From the NCBI RefSeq assembly GCF_020379485.1, contig NC_063438.1:9004335-9068334 (forward strand): 64,000 bases of DNA, read 5' to 3'. The DNA is from Brassica napus (Eukaryota > Streptophyta > Magnoliopsida > Brassicales > Brassicaceae). This document shows, in pieces, positions 13,269 to 28,219 of the stretch (the first letter of the stretch is position 1; the number at the start of each line of letters is the position of its first letter). The notes beneath the pieces were generated by a model. That model had not been told where the DNA came from. It saw only the letters and a list, made by a program, of their open reading frames with translations, and ran no database searches. A program made the translations under genes and the position numbers.

Positions 13269-13277
13269 ATAAAATAA
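13269..13277. repeat. Left 9-bp target duplication of the MULE
   Basis: ATAAAATAA here is repeated exactly at 28211-28219, immediately outside the right end. A 9-bp duplication is the hallmark of Mutator-type insertion. Confidence 0.9.
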
Positions 13278-13360
13278 GGGAAGTTTACTAGAATGTTACA
13301 TATTTTAGGTGTATTGACTAGAATGATACAGATCTTTTTTTTATTACTAGAATATTTTCG
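13278..13360 (+). repeat. Left terminal inverted repeat of the MULE
   Basis: This aligns over about 83 bp with the complement of 28128-28210, with roughly three quarters of positions alike. It holds three copies of the motif TTACTAGAATG, and two more copies occur inside the element near 13908 and 14004. Confidence 0.8.
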
Positions 13361-13479
13361 ATACCAAGCGTACCCTTTTTTTACGTTATGAGAAAAAACG
13401 TATTTACGAGAATGCCATTACTTTTCGCTGCCACGTAGGCAAAAAACCGGCGCCACGGAGGAATTCGCGTCCGTATTTT

Positions 13480-14120
13480 CATTAAGTCAGCTGTTAAGCG
13501 ATAGATACGTAGTTACGGCCGATTTATCTTTACGTTACGGCTGACTTAATACATACGACTGACTTAAGTGAAAGTGGCTGACTTAAAACTATAAGTCAGC
13601 TTGCCGATACAACTGATTTACAGAAATCCGGCTGAGTTATGTGACCACGGCTGACTTAATGATACAAATGACGGCTGACTTATACATCGGCGGTTTGATT
13701 TCTGGAAAATTTGGCTGAGTCGTGGTTAAGAAACGGCTGAGAAACTTTTTTTCAGCTGAGTAAAGGAACATGGATGGGCTGGGTTATTGAAGCCACGGCT
13801 GAGTTATGGGATGCTGTTACGACTGGGTTTGTATTAGTCAGCCGTTAAAGCATGGATAAACAGTAAACTCAGCTGCTTTGCGGCTGACGTATGAGCGAAA
13901 GATTAATTACTAGAATGTTCTCGTTTGATGGCTGATTTACGTAACGATACGGCTGACATATGGTTGTTCATCCTTATTGCGGCTGACTTACTGTCAAAAG
14001 ATTAATTACTAGAATGTTTCCATGTATCGGCTGACAAAGTGTAAAATGATGGCTGACTTATTTTGGCTGAGTTACTGATTTGTTTGTCGGCTGATTAACC
14101 GATGTTCCATGTCATCTGCC
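13480..14120. repeat. GGCTGAGTTA/GGCTGACTTA motif array, left block
   Basis: More than twenty copies or near-copies of GGCTGA(G/C)TTA occur in about 640 bp, in both orientations, separated by unrelated spacers. This block lies between the left terminal repeat and the transposase gene, where the promoter should be. Confidence 0.85.
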
Positions 14121-14283
14121 ATGTCATCAACTCGGATTTGACATGTCATCACTAACGGTCGCCCAATTTACAACTGAGTTACGAGACCTTTCAGTTGTCT
14201 TCTTCATCTTATTTTTGAATGATTACACAGCCTTTCTTTTCTTCTTCATCATCTCAGTTATCTATCCTCTTCATCTTTCTCAT

Positions 14284-17088
14284 ATGGTAATGGATCCCGT
14301 TATTATTGTTTCCGGTAAATGGATTATGAAAAAACGATATGTATTCAACGTCGACAGTAGAGGGTGTAGAGTTCTTCATTTAGGTGAGAAAACTAAACTT
14401 GAAGATTTCACAAAGTCTGTCATCGACGATTACGGTTTGAATGATTTGAAGGTTCATATTCTGCTTAGCTACATGTTTTCGAATAAAACATTGAAAACAA
14501 TGGCGCACAACACTCCACCAGTTTACGTGTCCAACACTCGACAATTGCAATGTTTTCTAAGCTTAAAGAAAAGCGAACAACTACGTCTCTGTGTGGAGAT
14601 TACAGAGAAAAAGGATGACAGCTCAGACGTAGAAGCTTCAGAAGAAGAAGCTTCAGAAGAAGAAGCTTCAGAAGAAGACGCTTCAGAAGAAGACGCTTCA
14701 GAAGAAGACGCTTCAGAAGAAGAAGCTTTAGAAGAAGAAGCTTTAGAAGTTGAGTCTATAGAGAATGGGAGTTACGATGGTTGCAGTTTGGAGGATGAAC
14801 AAGATGAAATTGAGAATGACTGCTTTAGTAACGTTGAAATACACGACGTAGCCGGAGAAGATGAAATAGGCAAAGAAAACGAAGAAGATGATGAATTTGA
14901 AAGTCGATTTGATATGTTCGATGACTCGGACGGTGCGTCATCTGAAGATGATAACTTCAGCACATACGGTGAGTCTCCTATCGAAGAAGACGAAGATTCA
15001 CCAACGCTACCTTCCAAGAAGAGATATCAGAACTTCTTGATGAGCGAATCTAAAGGGAATCTGGAGGTTTTGAAGTTGGAGATGTCGTCGTTAGACCTTG
15101 CGGTAGGACAACGATACTTGACTAAAAAGCATTTGAAGAGACGACTGAAACTTTTTACAGTGAGGCATCAATTTGATTTTGATGTAGAAATATCAAACCT
15201 GACAACATACGTTGTTAAGTGTTGGGTTGATGGATGTACATGGAGAGTTCGTGCATCTACCGAAGGATTGTCCCCGCAGTTTTATATTCGTATTTACGAC
15301 TCGGATCATGCATGTTCTGTAACTGAGCGTTCTAATCGATCTCGAAATGCAACACCGGATATTTTAGGAGAGTTGTACAAGAACTTTCTCGGCGACGTTG
15401 GTCCGGCCGTTCGCCCTGAGAGTGTCGGAATAGCTATCACTAAGCAGTTTGGTGTAAAGGTAATTATGTTAAACGGCTGAGTTATGGTAGAGTATAGGCT
15501 GGGTTATTTTATGTTAGAAATGGCTGAGTTACAAAACTATGGTTGAGTTATGTTTACGTTGTGACCGTCTTAATGATATGATGTGGCTGAGTTATGTAAA
15601 TTGTTTTTTCATGTGAGCAGATGGAATATTGGAAATCACACCGGACGCTTAAATGTGCAAGGGAAATCGATGAGGGCACACCTGAGTGTGGTTTTGAACT
15701 CTTGCCTTCTTACTTATACATGATAAGAAGGGCAAATCCGAATACAGTTACGCGTCTTCAAATCGATGAGCTTGGAAGATTCATGTATGTGTTTCTTGCG
15801 TTTGGTGCGAGCGTTAATGGGTTTCCTTTCATGCGCAAAGTTGTTGTCGTCGACGGTACGTTTCTTAATGGTAAATATAAAGGGACGCTACTCACAGCAC
15901 TAGCTCAGGATGGTAACTTTCAGATTTTTCCAATAGCCTTCGCAGTGGTTGACACTGAAAATGATGATTCGTGGAATTGGTTTTTTACGCAACTAAAAGT
16001 GTTGATTCCTGACCAGGAGGGTCTTGCGATAATATCAGATAGGCATAACTCGATAGGGAAAGCAATTACAAATGTGTATCCGTTAGCTGCTCGTGGAATA
16101 TGCACCTATCATTTGTATAAAAACATATTGGGACGGTACAAAGGAAAAGATGTATTTCGGCTGGTGAAGAAAGCGGCGAGATGTTTTAGAATGTCTGACT
16201 TTGATATGATTTTCGAGGAGATTGAAGCACTTAATCCTGATCTCCACGGCTACCTCGAAAGAGCTGATGTCAGACTGTGGACACGTGTTTATTTCCCGGG
16301 CGAGAGGTACAATTTGATGACTACGAACATAGCGGAATCAATGAACAGAGCATTATCGCATGCTAGAGGTCTTAACATTGTTCGAATATTGGAATCGATA
16401 CGGGTTATGATGACCAGATGGTTTGCTGAACGAAGAGTGGATGCCAGATCGCAGTCAACCACACTCACGCGCGGTGTGGAGAAACTATTACAAGTAAGTC
16501 AGTCGTAACAGTAAAATAAGTCAGTCTTTAAATCTAATAAGTCAGTCGTTATATTGCATAAGCCAGCTTTATAAATAATAAGTAAGCCGTTTCACGAATA
16601 TTGGGTTTTGTTAATAGGGACGTGTAAGTGCCTCCCGGGATTGGACGGTTCAAAGGATTGATGACCATCACACTGAAGTTAAATATGGCGCTGCTGGCGA
16701 GTCTTTGAATGTTGTTAATTTGGTTGAGCGAAAGTGCACATGTCGGCGTTTCGATGTCGAGAAAATACCATGTGTACACGCAATCGCAGCTGCAGAGGAA
16801 AGAAATGTTTCTCGTATATCACTGTGCAGTCCTTACTATAAAAGCACTTATTTAGCTAGCGCATACGCTGAATCGGTCATGCCGGTTGACTCAGCGCTAC
16901 CTGTTCCAGATAACGTGGCTAACGTACAGTGCTTTCCACCGTTTATTCGTCAACAACCGGGAAGACCTAAAAAAAATAGGATGAAATCTGCTTTAGAAGT
17001 TGCACTTGCAAACAAACGTCCTAGGAAAGAGCACATATGTTCTCGTTGCAGTCAAAGTGGACATAATGCGAGAACTTGTCCGATATAA
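14284..17088 (+). CDS. MURA-type Mutator transposase
   Basis: Three exons, 14284-15459, 15621-16493 and 16618-17088, join in phase across GT-AG introns to about 839 residues. The N-terminal part has a ubiquitin-like/PB1-like region, then an acidic repeat of EASEE-type units (residues about 120-160). A DBD_Tnp_Mut-like domain follows (LTKKHLKRRLKLFTVRHQFD...YVVKCWVDGCTWRVRA). Exon 2 holds the MULE catalytic core: VVDGTFLNGKYKG (first Asp), IISDRHNSIGKAI (second Asp) and a downstream Glu-rich segment near NIAESMNRAL. Exon 3 has a SWIM zinc finger (CTCRRFDVEKIPCVHAIAA) and a C-terminal CCHC knuckle (CSRCSQSGHNARTC). No stop or frameshift is seen, so the protein may be functional. Both introns contain the element's GGCTGA-type motif. 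An upstream start at 14143 in the same frame is possible but gives a hydrophobic, unlikely leader. Confidence 0.92.
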
Positions 17089-17104
17089 GCAATTGCTTTT
17101 CATG

Positions 17105-17280
17105 TTGTTTTGTAATACGGCTGGGTTTTGTGTTGTAATACGGCTGGGTTTTGTGTTGTAATACGGCTGGGTTTTATTTTCATTGATTTGCACAACGGCT
17201 GGTTTATTATTTGTAATACGGCTGGTTTTTGTGTTGTAATACGGCTGGGTTTTTTTGTATTGTGGTTGGGTTTTTATTTT
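17105..17280 (+). repeat. Tandem TTGTAATACGGCTGGGTTTT repeats
   Basis: About seven units of 20-24 bp, each containing ACGGCTGGGTTTT, follow directly after the transposase stop codon. This is a local amplification of the element's motif in the 3' untranslated or terminator region. Confidence 0.85.
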
Positions 17281-17741
17281 CATTGATTTGCCCGCTTCCC
17301 ATTACTCAAGAGAGACACAGACATCGAAAAACGAAATGTCCGTACTTAATTGCCCTACGTTACGTAATAGCCCCTACGTAATTATTGATTATAAAGTGGA
17401 ATACGAAAGTAGCGAATTAAATTAAGAGAAATTAATCTTCATTGGCTGAGATAATGTTACTCACACGCCTAATAATTGTCGTGATTTCTAATGTCAGCTC
17501 TTTTATTCAAACGCAGTTGAAAAAAACTTCCCCGCTAGAAACACGAAACGTCGCGAAGTCAACTAAGGCTGAGTTATTGTAATACACGGCTGAGTTATGG
17601 ATTAAATTCCCGCTCAAAATAAGAAATAAGAAACGCCGCGATACGAAACTACAACCGTTAACTGCAGATAAATAAGGTACTTCTCAAACAATTACACATC
17701 TTCAACTCTCTATCTTTTACACAACTGTCCTCTCAGAGAAA

Positions 17742-18437
17742 ATGGAATATTTCCCTCTGCTTGAATTGCCTGAAGATCTTCAGGCAATGGTGGTTGAACG
17801 TGTGGCCCGTAACTCCTTCCAAGATCTCTACCGCCTCAGAGCATCGTCCAGGTCGATGAAGGCGTTAGCAGAGATGCGTAGGGTATACCATTATTTCGAT
17901 GTGTTATCCTTTCCCTGGGGTCTCATTATGCCATCTCAGTTGTTGAAAACTTGCTACGCTGAGAACAATCCAAGCACAATTTATGTAAAGGGTGTACAGT
18001 TTTTCTACTCATACGATGAGCAAGATTATGGCCTTTCTCTCCTCAAGCGTGCAGCAGATGCAGGATATGAGCGTGCAGTGTATACACACGCTATGACTCA
18101 AGCAATCTTTTACGGTGATGCGCAGTATTTTCGGAGAATTCCAAGAGCAACTGTTGACAGGGTCGGGAAACTTGTTCGAGATGCGAAATGGGGATGGGGT
18201 TTGTGGCATACTGACGAGTTCCGTCAAATTAAGGCCATGTTCACTTCTACTTATGTTCCGTCCTTCTACCTTTGCCAATGTGCAAATGTTGTGGACCGAC
18301 AATGTCTCTGCCTATGGCACATTGATGTGACTAAGGACGACAACATGTGTGAGCGCTGTTTCTGGATCAAAGAGATTTCCTTGTTCTTTCGTGATTTTGA
18401 ACCGATAAGCCTGTTTAGGGACACAAGTAAGTGGTGA
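17742..18437 (+). CDS. F-box protein carried by the MULE (At2g35280/At1g67623-like)
   Basis: This is a single exon of 231 residues. The first 45 residues fit an F-box: LPEDLQAMVVERVARNSFQDLYRLRAS. The middle part has YGLSLLKRAADAGYERAVYTHAM, a SEL1/TPR-like repeat found in a plant family of small F-box proteins such as At2g35280 and At1g67623 (recalled from memory). The C-terminal part has a cysteine cluster (CQCANVV...CLCLWHID...CERCFW) that could bind metal. F-box proteins pick substrates for SCF ubiquitin ligases; the substrate here is unknown. The gene lies in the same orientation as MURA, 653 bp after its stop, with no sign of decay. It could be a captured host gene or a long-standing cargo of this element type. 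Confidence 0.75.
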   Translation: MEYFPLLELPEDLQAMVVERVARNSFQDLYRLRASSRSMKALAEMRRVYHYFDVLSFPWGLIMPSQLLKTCYAENNPSTIYVKGVQFFYSYDEQDYGLSLLKRAADAGYERAVYTHAMTQAIFYGDAQYFRRIPRATVDRVGKLVRDAKWGWGLWHTDEFRQIKAMFTSTYVPSFYLCQCANVVDRQCLCLWHIDVTKDDNMCERCFWIKEISLFFRDFEPISLFRDTSKW

Positions 18438-18524
18438 AGATGTCTCTGCATCAGAATCTTATCTTTTTTATGTTTTTTGCTATGCCATTATGTATGTCGA
18501 ACAAAAAAATTATATATTCTGTTT

Positions 18525-18830
18525 TTATGGCTGACTTATTTTCTTATGGCTGAGTTATTTTCATCTTATGGCTGACTTATTTTCATCTTATGGCTGAGTT
18601 ATTTTCATCTTATGGCTGACTTATTTTCATCTTATGGCTGAGTTATTTTCATCTTATGGCTGAGTTTTGATTGTTTTTTGATTGTTAGAAATATGACTGT
18701 TTTTTGATTGTTCACCTAAACGTTAAGACTGATATTATTACATGTTACGGCTGAGTTGTTGTTTCGGAAGAAATTAACAACGGCTGAGTTAAATCCGAGT
18801 TACATAAACATAGACTGACTTATGAGTACA
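18525..18830 (+). repeat. TTATGGCTGACTTATTTTCATC tandem array
   Basis: Six near-identical units of about 22-24 bp (18530-18665) alternate TTATGGCTGACTTATTTT and TTATGGCTGAGTTATTTT. Scattered copies of the motif follow to 18830. The array lies between the F-box gene and the first GRF gene, which converge on it. Confidence 0.88.
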
Positions 18831-18872
18831 GAATCTGAGTAAACAAAGAAGTAGTAGTAGCAACTAATACAT

Positions 18873-19169
18873 TTAAGACTTCATCCTAAGACATTCAATA
18901 ATTTTTATGATCTCAGTTATGTCTTTCTTCATATCATCTAATTCTGCTTTTATAGCGGCCAAATCCTGCTCTATCGTCGCGAGTTTGTTTGCCACAACTA
19001 CAAACTCTTCATCATGTGCTTCATCAAGCCATTTGAAAACATGGTTTTGACCCGAATTTGCTCCACATCGATAAAATCTTCTACCCGGATTCTTTATTGT
19101 ACCTGACGTTAACACAATGGTAGCAGCTCCACAGTCGCACGTCCTTGGAATTCCACGCTGTAGATCCAT
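18873..19169 (-). CDS. GRF-type zinc-finger protein 1
   Basis: This is a single exon of 98 residues. It opens with a zf-GRF domain: CDCGAATIVLTSGTIKNPGRRFYRC and HVFKWLDEA, with the GRF zinc ligands (Cys-x-Cys, a later Cys, and the His of the HVFKW block). A charged coiled coil follows (about residues 55-98). GRF zinc fingers bind nucleic acid, often single-stranded, in proteins such as topoisomerase III and APE2. In Brassicaceae, many small GRF proteins of this shape are annotated and may be transposon cargo (recollection). The start at 19169 follows a motif-free leader. The frame is intact. Confidence 0.8.
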   Translation of the reverse strand: MDLQRGIPRTCDCGAATIVLTSGTIKNPGRRFYRCGANSGQNHVFKWLDEAHDEEFVVVANKLATIEQDLAAIKAELDDMKKDITEIIKIIECLRMKS

Positions 19170-19499
19170 CTAATTTATACATCATAGCACACAAAAATAA
19201 TGCAAAATCGAACAAGGCCAAAATACAAAAAATAATTCAAAATCGATTTTGGACGAAAGAGACTTACTTTAGGTTTTAGAAGTCGACTCTGGTTTTTCCT
19301 TTATCTTTTACTTGTAAATATTGGAAATATAATAGGGAAATCATATTAAATATAAAGATCACGCGTGTCCAAATAAAATAAACATATAATGACCTCGATA
19401 TCGTAAATTACTCGGACATGCGTGTCAGGACATAACTCGACACTGAGTTAAATTATGTATGACTCTTTTGGCCAACTTTTATTTTTTCGACATCATTAA

Positions 19500-19640
19500 A
19501 TATTAACAATTTTACGACTGAGGTTTAGTTTTCGGTATTATTAATTATTAACTATGTTACGGCTGAGTTTTATTCTTCGGCATTATTAATTATTAACAAT
19601 GTTACGGCTGAGTTATATTTTCCGGCATTATTTACTTTAC
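19500..19640 (+). repeat. GGCTGAGTTA motif cluster upstream of the B3 gene
   Basis: Three near-copies of a roughly 57-bp unit (TTATTAACAATTTTACGACTGAGGTT and relatives) carry the element motif. They lie between GRF gene 1 and the B3 gene, which diverge from here, so they may be a shared promoter region. Confidence 0.7.
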
Positions 19641-19809
19641 ACAAGGAAAAAAAAAGAAATCATTTTCGTCCCAACGCGAAAAAAAAAAGAAAAGCTCTCG
19701 ACGACAGGCGATTTCGATACGAAGGTAAAACCGAAGCCTCTCTTTTGCAGATTTGTGGATTCAGCTTCGGTTCGATGATGTTTTCTTCCCATTCTTTTCT
19801 TGTTTGCAG

Positions 19810-20725
19810 ATGCCTAATTCGCACAAACCTCATTTCTTGAAGCCTCTGCTTCCCGATTTCCACAGTGGCGTGGTAGACACACACTCTCTATTTCTCATGT
19901 GTATATGTTCCTATTTTAGAGTTTGCTTAACTTTGGCTTTTCTGACCTGCAGACAATACCACTTGGCTTCTTCTCACAGCACATAGAAGGGAAGACAAAC
20001 CGGAAAACATGGAAACTAAGATCGGACGCTACAGATCAAACTTGGGAAGTGATACAAGAAGGCAGGAGACTCACCGGAGGTTGGAAAGATTTCACCACAG
20101 CACATGACCTTCAAATCGGTGACATTGTCATCTTCAAACACGAAGGAGATATGGTGTTTCATGTCACACCATTTGGTCCTAGCTGTTGTGAGATTCAGTA
20201 TACACATCCTCACATCATCAAGGAAGAAGCCGATGCGGATGATGCTCCTTCTTTCTCATTTGACTATTGTTTTCAGGCTGAGGTCACTGCTTCGAATCTA
20301 AAAGAAGACAAACTTGTGAGTCGATTTTCAGTTATAGACCATATTTAGTTAGTTATTAACATATGGTTTGATCTGTTCAGTGTCTTTACGTTCTGTGTTT
20401 GCAGTATTTAGTTAGTTATTAACATATGGTTTGATCTGTTCTGTGTCTTTACGTTCTGTGTTTGCAGTATCTTCCTGAGGGAGCTACGACTTGTACTGCT
20501 TTGAACAAACAATGCCAAGAGATAATACTTGTCAACAAAGAGGGAAATTCATGGACTGTGAGTTTGCGATTTAGCGAAGCAGACGGCATGTATTACATCA
20601 GAAGAGGCTGGAGAAAGTTCTGTCGTGCTAACAGATGCGCCATAGGAGACTTATTTGTGTTCAATGTGGTTGGAGATGGGAAAACTACTCCACTAATGTG
20701 TGTATGTCCGGAAAGGGAAGAGTGA
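19810..20725 (+). CDS. B3-domain (REM-like) protein carried by the MULE
   Basis: Three exons, 19810-19872, 19953-20315 and 20468-20725, join in phase to about 227 residues. The first B3 domain starts HKPHFLKPLLPDFHSGV and continues TIPLGFFSQHIEGK, then WKLRSDATDQTWEVIQEGRR, TGGWKDFTTAHDLQIGDIVIF and HVTPFG. This is the full order of a REM-type B3 fold. A second B3 domain follows (IILVNKEGNSWTVSLRF, GWRKFCRANRCAIGDLFVFN). B3 domains bind short DNA sites, and REM proteins act in flower and embryo sac development. No decay is seen. The gene is flanked on both sides by arrays of the element motif. It may be a captured host gene, or a DNA-binding protein working for the element. Confidence 0.85.
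20342..20467 (+). repeat. 63-bp tandem duplication in B3 intron 2
   Basis: The sequence TATTTAGTTAGTTATTAACA up to GTGTTTGCAG occurs twice in a row (about 20342-20404 and 20405-20467). Both copies end in a usable CAG acceptor. Use of the first would add 63 bases beginning TATTTAG, which stops in frame, so only the second gives the full protein. Confidence 0.85.
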
Positions 20726-20759
20726 TTTTGAACCTAAACTTATGTATGTCGAACCAGAA

Positions 20760-21200
20760 ATTTATGTATGTCTCTTTTTATGGCTGACTAATACTCATAT
20801 AATGGTTGGGTTATTGTTTGATTATGACTTAATTAACGTAACGACTGACTTCCACTGAACGTTATAGCTGAGTTACTAAAACGTTATGACTGACGAATAC
20901 TCATATAATGGCTGGGTTATTGTTTGATATGACTTAATTAACGTAACGGCTGAATTGCAGTGAACGTTATAACTGAGTTATTAAAACATTATGACTGACG
21001 AATACTCATATTATGGCTGGGTTATTGTTTGATAGTGACTTAATTAACGTAACGGCTGAATTGCAGTGAACGTTATAACTGAGTTATTAAAACGTTATGA
21101 CTGACGAATACTCGTATTATGGCTGGGTTATTGTTTGATTATGAATTAATTAACGTACTGGCTGAGTTGCATTGAACGTAATAGCTGAGTTACTAAAAAC
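20760..21200 (+). repeat. About 105-bp tandem repeats holding four motif variants each
   Basis: Four diverged units each contain TATGGCTGGGTTATTGTTTGAT, AATTAACGTAACGGCTGAATTG, GAACGTTATAACTGAGTTA and AACGTTATGACTGACGAATAC. This is a higher-order repeat built from the short motif. It lies between the B3 gene and the converging second GRF gene. Confidence 0.88.
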
Positions 21201-21231
21201 ATTGCGTCTAAATTATGATTACAACACATGA

Positions 21232-21688
21232 CTACGCAAAGAAATAGTGCCAAAATATGGCCATACCAAACCCACAAACCACCACTGGAAACATCAAACA
21301 CTTCATCTTTTCCGCTTTACCGAGTTCTTTCTCCAACCGACCAACGTCTACTCTCAGATCTGATATGCCTTTGGTCATGTCACTCATCACCGATTTCATA
21401 TCTTCTACCTCTTCCACCAAGCACTCGTCCGCCCATTTGAATAAATGTCTCTGATTTCACCAACATGCCCAGCTCTTAGTATCACATTGACAGTATAATG
21501 AATAAAATTAAAAATCAAACCTTAATATATCCTTTGCGACAGCAATAGTACAGTCTTCCTGGATTAGCCCGTGATGCAGATGTACATAATTCAGCGGGTT
21601 CACCACACCAACACTGTTTCGGCGTTCCTCTTTCCACATGCCGGCGGTGAAAGTAAGTGTTACCAGACACAGATGATGAAGAAGACAT
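21232..21688 (-). CDS. GRF-type zinc-finger protein 2, membrane-anchored
   Basis: Two exons (21688-21521 and 21450-21232) join in phase to 128 residues. Exon 1 has a GRF half-domain: CWCGEPAELCTSASRANPGRLYYCC. Exon 2 supplies HLFKWADEC, then a heptad-rich coiled coil (about residues 70-105) and a C-terminal hydrophobic segment CLMFPVVVCGFGMAIFWHYF that looks like a tail anchor. This layout, a GRF finger plus coiled coil plus tail anchor, differs from GRF protein 1, which lacks the anchor. The function is unknown; a nucleic-acid-binding protein held at a membrane is suggested by the sequence alone. Confidence 0.78.
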
Positions 21689-22059
21689 TTTCTTTGAATG
21701 AAAGAGAAATTGGTGTGAAAGACAAAGTTAAAACAATAGTGGTAGTAATATAAAATCATTTTTTTTTTAAATTCAAATAAAGAGGAATAATTTAAATTAA
21801 TAAACTATTAAATGCCTCGATATTAGGTTTGAGCCGTATTTTTCCACACACGTGATGCACTTTAATTATGACGAATACTCAATCAAATCAAGAAATACGA
21901 AAGGTTCTTTATTATTTTATCAAACACTTAAGTTGAATTCGTATTACGGCTGTGTTAGCGTCTATATTTTGGCTGAGTTAACGTAGACGTATTGACTGAG
22001 TTACATTAAAAATAACAATACCTCGATTATGTAAATAATCCGATACATGCGTGCCAGCC

Positions 22060-22275
22060 GTATAATAATGAGTCTCGATATTCTCAATGCAATGCAAACG
22101 AAATTTCTCATGCACATAATAATAAGAGAATAAAGGTCTCTAATAATAGTAGTCTCGATAATGTAATGACGGCCATAATAATGAGTCTCGATATTCTCAA
22201 TGACGATGGAATTTCTCGCACGTATAATAATAAGAGAATAAAGGACTCTAATACTGGTCTCGATTAAGTAATGGC
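22060..22275. repeat. About 115-bp direct tandem duplication
   Basis: Two units share TAATAATGAGTCTCGATATT, ATAATAATAAGAGAATAAAG and a closing run resembling GTAATGACGGCC. They are diverged by a few indels. No coding sequence is seen. Confidence 0.8.
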
Positions 22276-22324
22276 GGCCATAATAATACATTGAAAATAG
22301 CGTTAACTTTGGCTTTGTATTTTT

Positions 22325-22575
22325 ACAATATAAGGCTGAGTTATTAGTATCTTAATTCGTATTACGGCTGAGTTACTTAACTGAAACACTGACGTTTGAC
22401 GCAAACAATTCCGGCTGAGTTAAACAACTTTATAAAACCTTAACGGCTGAGTTAAACAACTTTATAGAAACTAAACGGCTGAGTTAAACAACTTAATAGA
22501 AACTTAATGGCTGAGTTAAACAACTTTATAGAAACTTAACGGCTGAGTTAAACAACTTTACAAAAACTTGACGGC
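22325..22575 (+). repeat. 37-bp tandem array GGCTGAGTTAAACAACTTTA
   Basis: Six units, each GGCTGAGTTAAACAACTTTA followed by a run resembling TAGAAACTTAAC, are almost identical, indicating recent amplification. The array lies immediately downstream of the PF03004-like gene, which points toward it. Confidence 0.9.
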
Positions 22576-22598
22576 TGAATACAAACAAAAACAACAAA

Positions 22599-23144
22599 TC
22601 AATTTCTAAAACCAAAATTATCAGGACCAAATTCTTCAAACATGTGGACAAGATCACGCCAAACTCTAGTTAGCATCCACGCAGGCTTCTCACCCCCATG
22701 TGCCCACCTCCTCTTCAAGAGGCGCATCTGACAACGAAACACCGTTCTGGCCACCAGATTAAAATTTGTCCAAACTTGAAAATTATATCTTCGTGCCCAC
22801 GTGCGTTTGCGCTACAACAAAAAACCAATTTCCAAATGTAAGTGCTGTTATTATGTCTAATATCAAAAACAATTCAAAGATGTTGTCCTTACAGCGAGTT
22901 GAAGAAACCAGCGTTCCTTAAAATGATCGGGAATGGCGCGCCATGTCGGCCAATCATGAACCCATCCTTCTGCTAAAATCGACGGGATGGCCAGGGAGAG
23001 ATCGCTTAGAAATTTAAACCAGATTACGCTGTCAAGCAAGACACCCGGGCCAGGGTATAGAACGGGAAGGTTTTCACGATTTTCAGAGTTTAGTATCTCA
23101 TTGACTCTGTTCTCTAACCTTTCTGAATAACCAGGAACAATCAT
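22599..23144 (-). CDS. Small PF03004-like protein of the MULE
   Basis: Two exons (23144-22893 and 22811-22599) join in phase to 154 residues. The middle of the protein reads WPTWRAIPDHFKERWFLQLA followed by RKRTWARRYNFQVWTNFNLV and MRLLKRRWA. This spacing of tryptophans and basic residues resembles the PF03004 block in the CACTA gene at 7082-8733 (W-x-K-T-P...TWFKMFA...KWHW...RL). Similarity is weak and is my reading, not a search result. The protein is basic and likely nuclear. The frame is intact. It has no other recognised domain. The next gene upstream is the Ulp1 protease in the same orientation. Confidence 0.6.
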
Positions 23145-23299
23145 AACTTTGTAAGGCGATATAGAGATATTGTTTAGGTTTTCTAGTGAGATAAGGCGAG
23201 AAGGTGCAAGAGAAGGGGGCTATATATAGGGGAAGTATAGAACATTAAAGGTCGCGAGATAAAATATCTAAAATTTTCGCGCCATATGTAAATATTAAC

Positions 23300-23770
23300 T
23301 TACACTAACAGGCTGAGTTATTAAGACCTTTACGGCTGATTTGTTGTTTGCCGTTTAGGGTATAGGGTTTAGTTATTTAGGGTTTGGGTTCCGAATAAGA
23401 TTGTTTAGGGTTATGATTTATGATGTACGAACCACAAGATATGATAAATATCACAAATTCATAATAAATAACACAATAACAGTTTACGTGTTTTGAATCA
23501 TGCTCACACCTCATATCACTGCCTAGAGTTTTAGGTACTCGTAAGAGACAACATATACCTCAAGATTATAATCGATTCCAAACTCGTATAGTCAACAAAG
23601 ATCATGCTCACACATTGAGTTATTATTAATTATTTTGATAATTGGACTTTATATATAACATTCGAATGAAAAATTATTAATTATTTTGATTCTAGGGTAT
23701 GTTTGAGGTATGACTGAGTTATCAATGAGTACTGGCTGAGTATTACTAATCGATACGACTGAGTTATTAC
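23300..23770 (+). repeat. Sparse motif copies between two minus-strand genes
   Basis: Scattered GGCTGAGTTA, GGCTGATTTG and GACTGAGTTA copies (about 23310, 23333, 23711, 23733 and 23756) lie in an AT-rich spacer with TAGGGTTTAG-type repeats around 23355-23410. No gene is seen. Confidence 0.6.
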
Positions 23771-23785
23771 AGCAGTTATCCAAAG

Positions 23786-26700
23786 TCAAATAGTTAACAT
23801 AACAACAAACACAGGTTCACAAACAAACACAGTTTCATTTGACAACAAATTGTTCATTCCAACATTTCCTCCTTCCTCGAGGATATCTGCTGCCATCTTC
23901 ACCCGTAACCCTTGAATATTACTATCGTTTATGCCATCAAAAGTTACACCAAGCGCTAGACACTCCACAAACTTCAACGAATAAACCCCACAATCACCTG
24001 ACATGTTGTTTTGTGGAATGTATCTTTTGCTCCTCCGTCTGAATGCGAACCTCTTCCTAGAATGCTTTCGGAGATCGGCAGGAATAAGCTCATTCAACAT
24101 CCAGGGAAGCATCTCCAGTAGAGGTCTAAAAGCATTTAGCATTTTTTGCTCACTTTCGGGTGTTGACTCTCCATAGATTGGATCGTAGCAATCTATCTTC
24201 TCCTTGATCAGATCCACGTGAAACGCCACCCAGTGATTACCGCCGGTTTGAAGACATCCGTACACGTGATCCACATCTGCATACCACTTCAAGTTTGTTG
24301 TAAATTCTTCGGGGAATCTCCCGTTTACCAACGCTTCATAACCACTGTCTTTGAACTTGAACGAAGCAGGTTTCATCCTGAACTGCCTGTAATCGGAAGC
24401 CCAAGAACTTAACAACCAAGGGTCTATGAAACCAATCCGCTTGGACCAGAATGGAGTGGGATCTCGCATGGACCTTTGTATGAGGACGTTCATATACGCA
24501 GCGATATGCTAGACAAAGAAAAATAATAAGTCAGCCGTAATATAATGAATTAAATATATAAGTCAGCCTTTATAGAATATATAAGTCAGCCTTAATAAAG
24601 ACTTACATTATCAAACACCCATCCATATTCTTTGTCAGGCCACGGTCTTTCATGCATGAGTATGCTGTAGAAGTCACTCTCATGATCAGCTGAGGGTTCT
24701 TCTGGTTTATCTTTAGGTGCTGGTGGTTTGGGTGGAATTGCCTTAATGTGTTGCTTCAGTTTTTCCAGTCGCGCCGGATCAACAGGTGCGCAAGGGTCGT
24801 ATATTACTGATGAAGGCGTAATGTTCTTCCTCATGCAAGTCGTCTGTCCATTGTCTCCAATGTACGGAAAAACTGGTGCTGAATCAAGGTTCGTCAATGA
24901 AAACCCTTGTGGAGATAACTTAACTGATTTCTCCCGAAGTTCCTTTATCACGGAAGATCTAATCAATTCAGCTGGCTCGACATCAGACTCCGCCGCCAAT
25001 GCGTTATCTTCCGCAAGAACTTCGTCGTTCGTCACAACACACATTCCTCTTCTTCTTTCTTCTTCTTCGGTAACTCAGCCTCTTTTTCCTTCTTTTTTTT
25101 CGGTAACTCAGCCTCGTCTTCCTTCTTTTTCTTCTGTAACCCAGCCTCTTGTTTCTTTTGTAACTCAGCCGCTTTTCTCTTCTGTTTCTTCTCCTCGTTC
25201 TCTTTTTTCTTAGCCTCTTGCTTCTCCTTCCTCTTCAACGCAGCCTCTGCCCGCTGTGCTTTTTTCTTATCCTCGATAGCCTCATCCTTTACAGTAACAG
25301 TACGCTTGGCCTTGCCCCGTAAGCCGCGTCCATAGGCTGGAACGTTGGCATCCTTACCATCCTTAGCATCCTTAGTAATCTTTGCAGGAGAAACACTGAT
25401 GAAATCAATTTCATTAAAATCATCACCCAAAATCCTTCTCACCACTGTATCCTTCTCAAGCTCCGAATTCTTCTTTGCAGGGGTCTCAGCTAACGCTGGA
25501 CTTTTGACTGACTTCTGCTGTTTCTGCTGCGCCGGCACCGGACTTTTGACAGCCTTCTCCTTCCGCTGCGGCGGCACCGGACTTTTGACAGCCTTCTCTT
25601 TCTGCTGCGGCGGCTCTGGACTTTTGACAGGCTTTTTCTGCTGCCGCGGTTCTGTCACTGGAGTTTTTACAGACTTCTCCTCCTGGGCCTGCGGTTCTAC
25701 CACTGGACTTTTGTCCGACTTTTCCGGTGGCGACCTCCTACGAGGTGATGATGTCACCGATAAAGATTTTTCTACGCCGGCGGAGGAGAGTTTAGCATCG
25801 TTGTCGGGAATTTTCCTTTCCCCCAAAACTTTCAGACTCTGCTGCACTACAGCTTTCACCACGTTATCTAGGGTCTTCTCGTCCATCACTGGCCGGTTCC
25901 GGTCAAAATCGTAAGCGTCAAATTTTGCTGAAATATTCTGCAGAGCACTCACAAGATTCGTCAGAGTCGCTTTGTCCAATACAGCTTCCTCCTCGCTAGA
26001 ACCCTTTCTCGTTTCAGCAGCTTCTTTCTTCTGCTTCTTTGTTGATGGCTCAGCTTCTGATGAAACTCCCTTCGTTTTCTTCTTCTTCTTCTTCTCATTC
26101 CCCTTCCCCTGCTCATCCCTCTGTACTTCCCAGAAACCTTTCACGTATCTACCTGCGTGTATGTCTTCTACCAACCTAACGAGTTGTGGGTCGTCAGGTT
26201 CATCCGACCATACAGGAAACATCTCTTCAATTGACTCCTTCATAACCATTCTCCTCAAACGGACCTGCAACACCAGTTTATCATAAACTCAGCCATCAAA
26301 TAACACAAAACCAAGCCATCAAATAAATTAATTCGGTCACAATATAAAATAAACTCAGCCATCAAATAGACTAATTCGGCAACAATATAAAATAAACTCA
26401 ACCATTAAGTAGCTGTTAACTCAGTCGTATAAGTAGCAGTTAAACATTACCTCGCCATGATCTTTGATTTCGTCAGACAAGACAGTATCAAAACTTGAAC
26501 GTGTACGCCTTCCACCCCATCGCAAAAGAGGAACGTCTTCATTGTTGACCACTCTCCCAAACTTCTCACCGAAACAGACGATGGACTCATACGCCCAAAC
26601 CAATAAAACGTCCTTCATGCCGCTTACTGTGTATGACTTTCCATCTGGAGACAGTGTTTTCAGAGAGTCAACAAGAACTTCGAATGCAGTCCGACCCCAT

Positions 26701-27296
26701 GGATACGACCTCATGGCTTCATCGTCGAATACCCTTATTGCACTTTGAAAGGGTATCCTTGAATTGTGATGCAAACAGTACAGTCCCATGGCTTGAAGAA
26801 ATAACATCCCCAACCACTTACGCTTTTCAAAACTCCAACCAGGACAGAACTCTAATGCTGCCTTCAGCTCATCATACTTGGGTCCCATCCCAAGCGGCAC
26901 CTTCAACTCCTCCCAAAACTCTTTGTATTGATCAGGTTCAAAACTTTCTGTTGGCAATGGACCTGTGTTTAACCCAGTGATCTCACCAAACTCGAGCAAG
27001 CTAAACCTGATAACATCATCAACCACAACAGACCATATCTCCTTTTTATGCACTCGCAGCTGTCTACATAGCAGATAGTGTACGGTCCTACCAGACCAAA
27101 TGCTTTCGCGTGAAAGTAGCCTAGCAACTACTCCAATGGGAGAGTTCACCAGTTCTTCCCACACATCGAGTCCTATTGTTTCTTTAATGTGGGGGAAATG
27201 TCCTGCACGGAAATTATGATTGATATCTTTACCTTCTAGGTTAGAAGGGTAAAGTCTTGGAGGGTAATCACGTGGTTCGACTTGACTAACATCCAT
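23786..27296 (-). CDS. DUF1985-Ulp1 (C48) protease-like protein, one frameshift
   Basis: Exon 1 (27296-26451, start ATG at 27296) encodes a DUF1985-like domain (IWSGRTVHYLLCRQLR, FSLLEFGEITGL) with RSYPWGRTAFEVLVDSL after it. Exon 2 (26264-24607) is a basic linker with Lys-rich runs and KSPVPPQ-type repeats. Exon 3 (24508-23786) is the Ulp1/SUMO protease catalytic domain, with His (GGNHWVAFHVD), Asp (IDCYDP), Gln (IPQNNMSGD) and Cys (GDCGVYSLKF) in the correct order. Near 25040 the frame shifts by one base inside a purine-rich coding repeat, where one reading ends EEEECVL and the next continues VTNDEVLAED. This is a real lesion or a sequencing error. DUF1985-Ulp1 fusions are typical of plant MULEs. 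It may remove SUMO from host proteins. Roughly 1,080 codons in total. Confidence 0.85.
26280..26445 (-). repeat. Motif copies in Ulp1 intron 1
   Basis: AAACTCAGCCATCAAATA occurs three times with variants, i.e. the element motif in the opposite orientation. It fills much of the intron between exons 1 and 2. Confidence 0.75.
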
Positions 27297-27344
27297 CTGA
27301 TCATATAACACAACAATAAATCAGCCACAACATAAAAATAACAC

Positions 27345-27660
27345 AGCCATATCATAATATTAAAATATATTAGGTCATATATATAACTCAGCCATAACAT
27401 AATAATTACTCAGTTATAACATAACCATAACTCAGCCATAACATAATAATTACTCAGTTATAACATAACCATAACTCAGCCACAACAAAAAGCCCTAATT
27501 CAGACACAACAAAAGCCTAGACAATCACATATCTCAGCCGCAACATAACCCTAACTCAGACACAACAAAATCCTCGACAAACCCATAGCACAGTCAACAT
27601 AACCCTAACTCAGTCGCAACAAAAACCTCGACACACCCATATCACAGCCTCAATATATAA
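27345..27660 (-). repeat. TAACTCAGCC motif array upstream of the Ulp1 gene
   Basis: ATAACTCAGCCATAACATAA, ATTACTCAGTTATAACATAA and CTAACTCAGACACAACAAAA units repeat over about 315 bp, all in the orientation opposite to the left arrays. They lie in the presumed promoter of the Ulp1 gene. Confidence 0.85.
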
Positions 27661-28109
27661 CTGACCCACAAACTCAACCAAAATACAATATATAACGTCG
27701 CGACATCTTACCGGAAAAGATGAACTCGTTGATGAGAATGCGGTGAAGGCGATTTCGTACAGACGACGGTTTCTAAAAACTCCGACGAGACAGAGTTCAA
27801 CGACAGAGAGTTATAGAGAGTTCAACGACAGAGAGTTAGAGAGAGTTCGAAGAAGTAAAGAACAATGTCGACGAGGGTTTCGAAGGGTGAGACGATTTCG
27901 GTTTGCGGTTCCTTCTTCGACACAACACAGTTCTTCGTGTTCTTTTCTTTTTTTTTTTTACAAAACCGTATGTATGATAGTGATAGTGATAGTGATAGAG
28001 ACGGTTTGGTTTCAAAAAATAACTGATGTGATGTGGATTTTAAATAACTGATGTGGCTTTGATCTTTAAAATTAGTTTCAGAAAATAAAACATAACAAAA
28101 GCCCCTTAT

Positions 28110-28210
28110 TGTAAATTACTAGGAAAGAGAAAACATTCTAGTAATAAAACAAAGATATACAACATTCTAGTAATAAACCATAAAATGTGTAACATTCTAG
28201 TAATTTTCTC
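28110..28210 (-). repeat. Right terminal inverted repeat of the MULE
   Basis: Four copies of AACATTCTAGTAATAA-type sequence end at 28210, just before the 9-bp duplication ATAAAATAA (28211-28219). It is complementary to 13278-13360. Confidence 0.85.
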
Positions 28211-28219
28211 ATAAAATAA

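What the first reader, a model, noticed from the sequence alone, without database searches (positions are those of the whole stretch)
13278..28210. A 14.9-kb MULE carrying seven genes, bounded by a perfect 9-bp target duplication
The boundaries are unusually firm: TIRs of about 85 bp and an exact ATAAAATAA duplication. The cargo is broad: transposase, F-box, two GRF zinc fingers, a two-domain B3 protein, a PF03004-like protein and DUF1985-Ulp1. Most MULEs carry one to three genes. Six of the seven genes read without disruption, so the set may be maintained. The combination of ubiquitin (F-box), SUMO (Ulp1), DNA-binding (B3) and nucleic-acid-binding (GRF) proteins suggests a self-contained system to transpose and counter host silencing. 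That role is inference.
Basis: partly seen in the sequence, partly recalled or inferred. Interest (0 to 1): 0.9.

Follow-up and report, generated by a model that had tools for sequence, protein, structure and literature searches.

The report
Multi-gene transposon with anti-silencing target arrays
A young rapeseed jumping gene carries seven genes, including a relative of a protein known to strip silencing marks from transposons, and is studded with over a hundred copies of a short DNA motif that is probably that protein's landing site.

The parts
13269..13277 (.). left copy of the 9-bp target-site duplication ATAAAATAA
13278..13359 (+). left TIR with three ACTAGAATGTT-like sites at 13287, 13317, 13346
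13482..14283 (.). left-arm motif array, 27 sites, mostly +; motif bases more conserved than spacers
14284..17088 (+). MULE transposase, 3 exons (14284-15459, 15621-16493, 16618-17088), 839 aa; intron 1 holds 5 + and intron 2 holds 5 - motif sites
17742..18437 (+). F-box (sub-threshold) / TPR_27 At2g35280-like protein, 231 aa, open in 8 of 8 copies that hold it
18525..18821 (+). motif array, mostly 22-bp tandem units, between F-box gene and GRF1
18873..19169 (-). GRF1 zinc-ribbon protein, 98 aa
19810..20725 (+). two-domain B3 protein, 3 exons, 227 aa; its introns hold no motif site
20778..21198 (+). 106-bp tandem array, four units, several motif sites per unit
21232..21688 (-). GRF2 zinc-ribbon protein, 2 exons, 128 aa
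22333..22578 (+). motif array, mostly 32-bp tandem units
22599..23144 (-). gene X, 2 exons, 154 aa, no Pfam family
23786..27296 (-). DUF1985-Ulp1 (VANC/KIU-like) gene: DUF1985 exon 27296-26451, repeat-rich exon from 26264, Ulp1 exon 24508-23786; frame shifted in the middle in this copy
25070..25171 (-). four motif copies inside the repeat-rich coding exon, where they encode AEL/AGL repeats
27297..27710 (-). motif array upstream of the DUF1985-Ulp1 start codon
28129..28210 (-). right TIR with three ACTAGAATGTT sites at 28132, 28161, 28191
28211..28219 (.). right copy of the target-site duplication

Best explanation
The element is a young, multi-copy TIR-bearing MULE that carries its own sequence-specific anti-silencing system of the VANC type. 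SHOWN: the DUF1985 half of its DUF1985-Ulp1 protein is homologous to the DNA-binding protein VANC21 and has its fold; about 110 copies of GGCTGA(G/C)TTA lie in noncoding DNA, in 12 of 16 noncoding intervals (the four small introns of B3, GRF2 and X have none), in 22-, 32- and 106-bp tandem units among others, mostly oriented inward from both arms with the switch at the 3' end of the DUF1985-Ulp1 gene; the motif is also dense in five related elements whose sequence has diverged. INFERRED: the DUF1985-Ulp1 protein binds these arrays in cis and on sibling and non-autonomous copies, and removes DNA methylation so that the transposase can be expressed and act on the TIRs. The Ulp1 half may remove SUMO from chromatin proteins at bound sites. 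F-box, GRF2 and X are long-standing accessory genes of the lineage; B3 and GRF1 are later additions, and array DNA now flanks them, so that the longer element is covered too.
Against: No binding, methylation or expression data. Homology and fold do not prove that this protein binds this motif. In this copy the DUF1985-Ulp1 frame is shifted, so it would depend on siblings. Five left-arm sites and the five sites of transposase intron 2 point the other way. No clear helical period of sites beyond the favoured 18-25 bp spacing. Part of the motif's contrast comes from fast-changing spacers beside it: the left arm away from sites and their neighbours changed 17-21%. In introns and the 5' region the contrast was significant in some comparisons only, and the non-autonomous C262 and C422 show none between themselves (4.3 v 3.7%). 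The four comparators are relatives of each other, so the tests are not independent. The matrix was trained on the element. VANDALs are described as non-TIR MULEs; this one has TIRs.
Confidence: 0.8

Rival explanations
1. Accidental gene capture: an ordinary MULE picked up unrelated host genes that hitch-hike and decay. (It could be true of B3 and GRF1 while the best explanation holds for the rest.)
For: B3 homologs lie elsewhere in the genome without the motif arrays or the other genes (3 of 3 such places fetched); three diverged relatives lack B3 and a separate GRF1; 5 of 10 fetched copies are deleted to some extent; within the young family substitutions give no sign of constraint for most genes, on few differences.
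Against: All seven genes together in the window and 5 of 10 fetched copies; F-box open in 8 of 8, GRF1 7 of 7, GRF2 7 of 7, X 8 of 8, B3 6 of 7 (window counted, copies without the gene left out); F-box, GRF2-like, X and DUF1985-Ulp1 in the same order and strands in C116x; dN/dS F-box 0.52-0.68 (z 1.9-3.3), X exon 1 0.31-0.40, GRF2 exon 1 0.43-0.45.
Confidence: 0.12
2. The motif arrays are read by another element protein (transposase, F-box or B3), for example to place the transposase, and are not anti-silencing targets.
For: The three larger relatives fetched (C475, C116x, C79x) all encode a transposase and F-box proteins beside the arrays.
Against: B3 is absent from the three relatives, which keep the motif. 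The TIRs carry their own distinct repeated site, ACTAGAATGTT, the likelier transposase site (inference). Arrays far from the ends, in introns and between genes, fit VANC targets and not terminal sites; the DUF1985 protein has a fold solved on DNA.
Confidence: 0.1
3. The arrays are tandem repeats without function that grew by slippage.
For: Clear 22-, 23-, 32-, 45- and 106-bp tandem units and unit-step length variation; no constraint between C262 and C422.
Against: The same 10-bp core recurs in arrays with different spacers; motif bases changed 0.54-0.72 times as often as the rest of the arm, and for G/C bases alone 12-17% v 31-34%; nearly absent from coding DNA and surroundings.
Confidence: 0.05

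Closest known systems
VANDAL21 / VANC21 anti-silencing system (Arabidopsis thaliana)
   Same: MULE with a DUF1985 protein of the same fold; short motif in tandem repeats in noncoding DNA, same orientation within arrays; tandem peptide repeats in the variable part (PMC5735166, passages and sections).
   Different: Motif is GGCTGA(G/C)TTA, not YAGTATTAY; about 85-bp TIRs; an Ulp1 domain; F-box, GRF, X and B3 genes added; Brassica host.
VANDAL6 / VANC6
   Same: VANC protein with short noncoding motif arrays.
   Different: Motif AGTTGTCC/AGTTGTAC.
Kaonashi (KIU) Ulp1-carrying MULEs / Ulp1-type VANCs
   Same: Ulp1 domain in a VANC-type gene of a MULE; motif-directed hypomethylation is reported for KIU-carrying VANDALs (review PMC13317346, passages).
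   Different: Described as non-TIR MULEs with three genes (same passages); here TIRs and up to seven genes. Sasaki et al. 2022 is not held, so its motifs were not compared.
Pack-MULEs (recalled)
   Same: MULE ends around gene-like cargo.
   Different: Here with its own transposase, intron-bearing genes, and most of the cargo kept open and partly syntenic between families.

Membership tests
Mutator-like element (MULE) | MULE/MuDR transposase | tested here: met
   PF10551 E 5.7e-23, PF03108 E 1.7e-9, SWIM E 4e-10
Mutator-like element (MULE) | target duplication of about 9 bp (length recalled) at dispersed copies | tested here: met
   perfect 9 bp in the window and in 8 of 10 other copies, with different sequences
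VANC-type anti-silencing protein | DUF1985/VANC fold | tested here: met
VANC-type anti-silencing system | short motif in dense noncoding arrays of the element family | tested here: met
   genome-wide specificity of the motif was not searched
VANC-type anti-silencing system | protein binds the motif | not testable with these tools
   needs EMSA, ChIP or DAP-seq
VANC-type anti-silencing system | methylation loss in trans at motif-bearing copies | not testable with these tools
   needs transgenic lines and bisulfite sequencing
VANDAL / Kaonashi transposon family | non-TIR MULE (as written in PMC13317346, passages) | tested here: not met
   about 85-bp TIRs, 80% complementary; so it works like a VANDAL but is not filed as one
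KIU (DUF1985 + Ulp1) gene | Ulp1 protease domain in the same gene | tested here: met
   PF02902 E 8.1e-42, same strand downstream of DUF1985; exon joining is my model without transcript
F-box protein | F-box domain above Pfam cut-off | tested here: not met
   16.6 v 20.5 bits; no F-box model above cut-off in any of 7 proteins scanned, one of them the window protein's own cluster; TPR_27 above cut-off in all 7
PF03004 Transposase_24 | Pfam match for gene X | tested here: not met
   exon-1 frame no match; not among the families matched by 17 relatives at E<=1

The most novel reading that the evidence does not exclude
The element is a two-level anti-silencing transposon: the DUF1985-Ulp1 protein clears methylation locally at GGCTGAGTTA arrays, while the conserved, often duplicated F-box/TPR protein (with GRF2 and X as partners) acts in trans to have a host silencing factor degraded, as viral F-box suppressors do (recalled parallel: polerovirus P0). 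Array DNA expanded with the acquired genes so that cargo is kept active.
Probability: 0.25. Interest if true: 0.88.

Novelty: new variant of a known kind. Interest (0 to 1): 0.64.

Why it matters
VANC anti-silencing has been worked out in Arabidopsis VANDALs. This family in Brassica would add a TIR-bearing MULE, a new target motif, a protein comparable with a solved VANC-DNA structure, and a recurrent accessory module with an F-box/TPR gene. It gives a ready test of how DUF1985 proteins change DNA specificity, whether the Ulp1 half matters, and whether transposons also attack silencing through protein degradation. It also suggests that part of what looks like gene capture by a MULE can be a maintained toolkit.

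Tried and rejected
PF03004 for gene X: rejected. X structure: AF2 model too poor (pLDDT 52), not searched. Helical periodicity of motif spacing (a recalled claim for VANC targets): after collapsing similar spacers, 31 of 54 same-strand spacings of <=60 bp fall at 18-25 bp and 11 of 54 at 30-34 bp, but no clear period emerged. dN/dS within the young family: too few differences (pooled ratios 0 to 1.58, two genes without synonymous change), so between-family comparisons were used. Those pairs include branches of dead copies, and several comparator exons hold stops or indels (GRF2 exon 2, X exon 2, C475 DUF1985, one stop in C79x transposase exon 2), so ratios are rough; one X comparison gave 1.14 (second copy in C79x). 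B3 as motif reader: rejected because three relatives without B3 keep the motif. Genome-wide searches for GRF1, X and the right end were asked for and not answered; searches for DUF1985-Ulp1 and for the motif pattern were planned and never sent. Paper searches (listings with abstract starts) showed no paper describing this motif or an F-box/GRF/B3-carrying VANC-type MULE; the most relevant paper (Sasaki 2022) is not held, so I do not claim that it is unpublished. PMC10398659 was seen in passages only.
Full report
Where it is. The window is G000:C116:9004335-9068334 of a 997-Mb genome. Contigs C116 (29,228,566 bases) and C1 (30,963,416 bases) have exactly the lengths of contigs that hold proteins named Brassica napus (P0061, P0011), so I take the host to be Brassica napus. 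Of 40 scored left-end matches, 23 (window included) are at >=98% over the full or nearly full query, 16 at 82-85%, and one is a partial match at 100%. That the two identity groups are the A and C subgenomes is my inference from contig sizes.

Observation. The element runs from 13278 to 28210 with ATAAAATAA on both sides. The TIRs are about 85 bp and 80% complementary, each built of three inward ACTAGAATGTT-like sites 29-30 bp apart. I fetched 10 of the 22 other copies at >=98%. They were chosen by the left end; the right end was found in 10 of 10, apart from a one-base change at one tip. 8 of 10 have a perfect 9-bp duplication of a different sequence, one has one mismatch, one has no exact 9-bp duplication.

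Gene content across copies. Of the 10, 5 span the whole element, 2 have partial deletions and 3 are internal deletion derivatives. Open frames: transposase 9 of 10, F-box 8 of 8, GRF1 7 of 7, B3 6 of 7, GRF2 7 of 7, X 8 of 8; the window copy is counted, copies in which the gene was not found whole are left out. In the window the DUF1985-Ulp1 frame is shifted in its middle; 8 of 9 siblings with that part read open there, though one of these is broken in another exon. Genome-wide, the F-box gene has 151 matches, of which 21 at >=98% identity, all 21 without stops. Comparing coordinates by eye, 20 of these 21 lie 4.4-4.8 kb from a left end (one of those left ends is the partial match). B3 exon 3 has 20 matches at >=99%, none with a stop; 17 of 20 lie within 3 kb of such an F-box, one about 10 kb away, one beside a left end whose F-box is deleted, one with neither. 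Only the best candidates are scored in these searches, so the counts are lower bounds.

The motif. Repeat finding showed CGGCTGAGTTA-like units in many arrays. With at most one mismatch, GGCTGAGTTA has 67 sites in the element and 3 in the other 49 kb; the first 49 are all +, the next 18 all -. A matrix trained on the element finds 117 sites (score >=9): 110 in 6650 noncoding bp, 7 in 8283 coding bp, 12 in 49067 bp outside (coding by my gene models). Because the matrix was trained on the element I used shuffles: at score >=10, 107 sites against a mean of 2.8 and a maximum of 7 in 50 dinucleotide shuffles. At score >=9 the orientation plan is 82 + and 11 - before the switch, 1 + and 23 - after it (my count from the strand string); the exceptions are five left-arm sites, the five sites of transposase intron 2, and one site each in the GRF2 and DUF1985-Ulp1 coding sequence. 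Twelve noncoding intervals that I measured in the six full-length copies hold 2-27 sites each (109-112 per copy in all), and interval lengths differ partly in unit steps such as +44 and +66 (22-bp unit) and -32. I did not measure the four small introns of B3, GRF2 and X there; the site list shows none in them. So the introns of transposase and DUF1985-Ulp1 carry the motif and those of the later-looking genes do not. Four of the coding sites lie in the repeat-rich exon of the DUF1985-Ulp1 gene and encode AEL/AGL repeats.

The motif in relatives. Two 5.1-kb non-autonomous elements (C262, C422) with related ends have 46 sites each, and an element of about 11.8 kb (C475) 89. The stretches fetched around two further relatives (C116x, cut inside the DUF1985 exon; C79x, cut inside the transposase) have 98 and 99. 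In the left arm, motif bases changed in 13.2% (C262), 16.3% (C422), 13.6% (C475) and 13.2% (C116x), against 22.3, 22.6, 24.4 and 24.3% elsewhere (Fisher p 0.0019, 0.04, 0.0004, 0.0002); for G/C bases alone 12-17% against 31-34%. The 10-bp windows 11 bp to either side changed 29-35%, and the arm away from both 17-21%, so part of the contrast comes from fast spacers. These relatives are not independent of each other. In transposase intron 1 the contrast was significant (p 0.04, 0.03), in DUF1985-Ulp1 intron 1 in one of two counts (0.01, 0.15), in transposase intron 2 and the DUF1985-Ulp1 5' region not; between C262 and C422 it was absent (4.3 v 3.7%).

Core and additions. C475: transposase (exon 2 89% identical), two F-box genes, DUF1985-Ulp1; no GRF, X or B3. 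C116x: an extra transposase fragment and F-box gene, then transposase, F-box, GRF2-like, X, DUF1985-Ulp1 in the window's order and strands; no B3, and GRF1 matches only at the GRF2-like gene. C79x: transposase, two F-box genes, X, DUF1985-Ulp1, followed by a GRF2-like gene and a further X, perhaps from a neighbouring element. Window against relatives, Nei-Gojobori: transposase exon 2 dN/dS 0.20-0.27, exon 3 0.48-0.52; F-box 0.52-0.68 (z for pS>pN 1.9-3.3); GRF2 exon 1 0.43-0.45; X exon 1 0.31-0.40 with one outlier of 1.14, exon 2 0.22-0.31; DUF1985 0.36-0.51; Ulp1 0.57-0.67 (z 1.8-2.9). B3 exons 2 and 3 against B3 genes outside the family 0.28-0.48, the small exon 1 0.20, which may reflect selection on the other lineage. 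GRF1 could not be compared. In C475 the F-box-to-DUF1985-Ulp1 spacer is about 0.7 kb; in the window it is 5.3 kb with four more genes and 44 sites in the five intervals between them. This suggests that arrays grew along with the cargo; it is inference.

Family spread. F-box homologs: 143 found, 120 listed; the named ones listed are Brassica, Raphanus and Sinapis, many of about 231 aa at 58-74% identity. X homologs: 35, those named by organism all Brassica. DUF1985 homologs: 65, the named ones all Brassicaceae.

Verdict. Observation confirmed. It works like a VANDAL with a VANC system; I do not file it as a VANDAL because it has TIRs. Novelty: new variant of a known kind. Sasaki et al. 2022 (EMBO J) is known to me only by recall and through the review PMC13317346 (passages); it may already list Brassica motifs.

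Noticed in passing
C422:15347432/15351719, C475:28766791/28762491, C439:2442686/2438508 and others (G000): Related elements often carry two F-box paralogs about 4.2-4.3 kb apart (72-74% and 58-61% identical to the window's), so the F-box gene was duplicated within the lineage.
   Followed up: partly
L035, L036 and the 72% group: B3 exon 3 has 21 further copies with the same score (72% identity, no stops), mostly in the contigs that carry the window's family; the one fetched (L035) lacks the motif arrays: perhaps another amplified element that carries B3, or a young host family.
   Followed up: partly
L029-L032 (C262, C422): A 5.1-kb non-autonomous family with related ends and 46 motif sites per copy but almost no coding sequence, a natural non-autonomous target of the proposed system.
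   Followed up: partly
window:20342-20470: A 63-bp near-perfect tandem duplication at the end of B3 intron 2, which doubles the 3' splice site.
   Followed up: no
window:52001-62000: Very AT-rich stretch (GC 21-31%) with (AT)n and short repeats; nature unknown.
   Followed up: no
window:9011-9196: 34-bp tandem array, 5.5 copies, 94% matches, outside the element.
   Followed up: no
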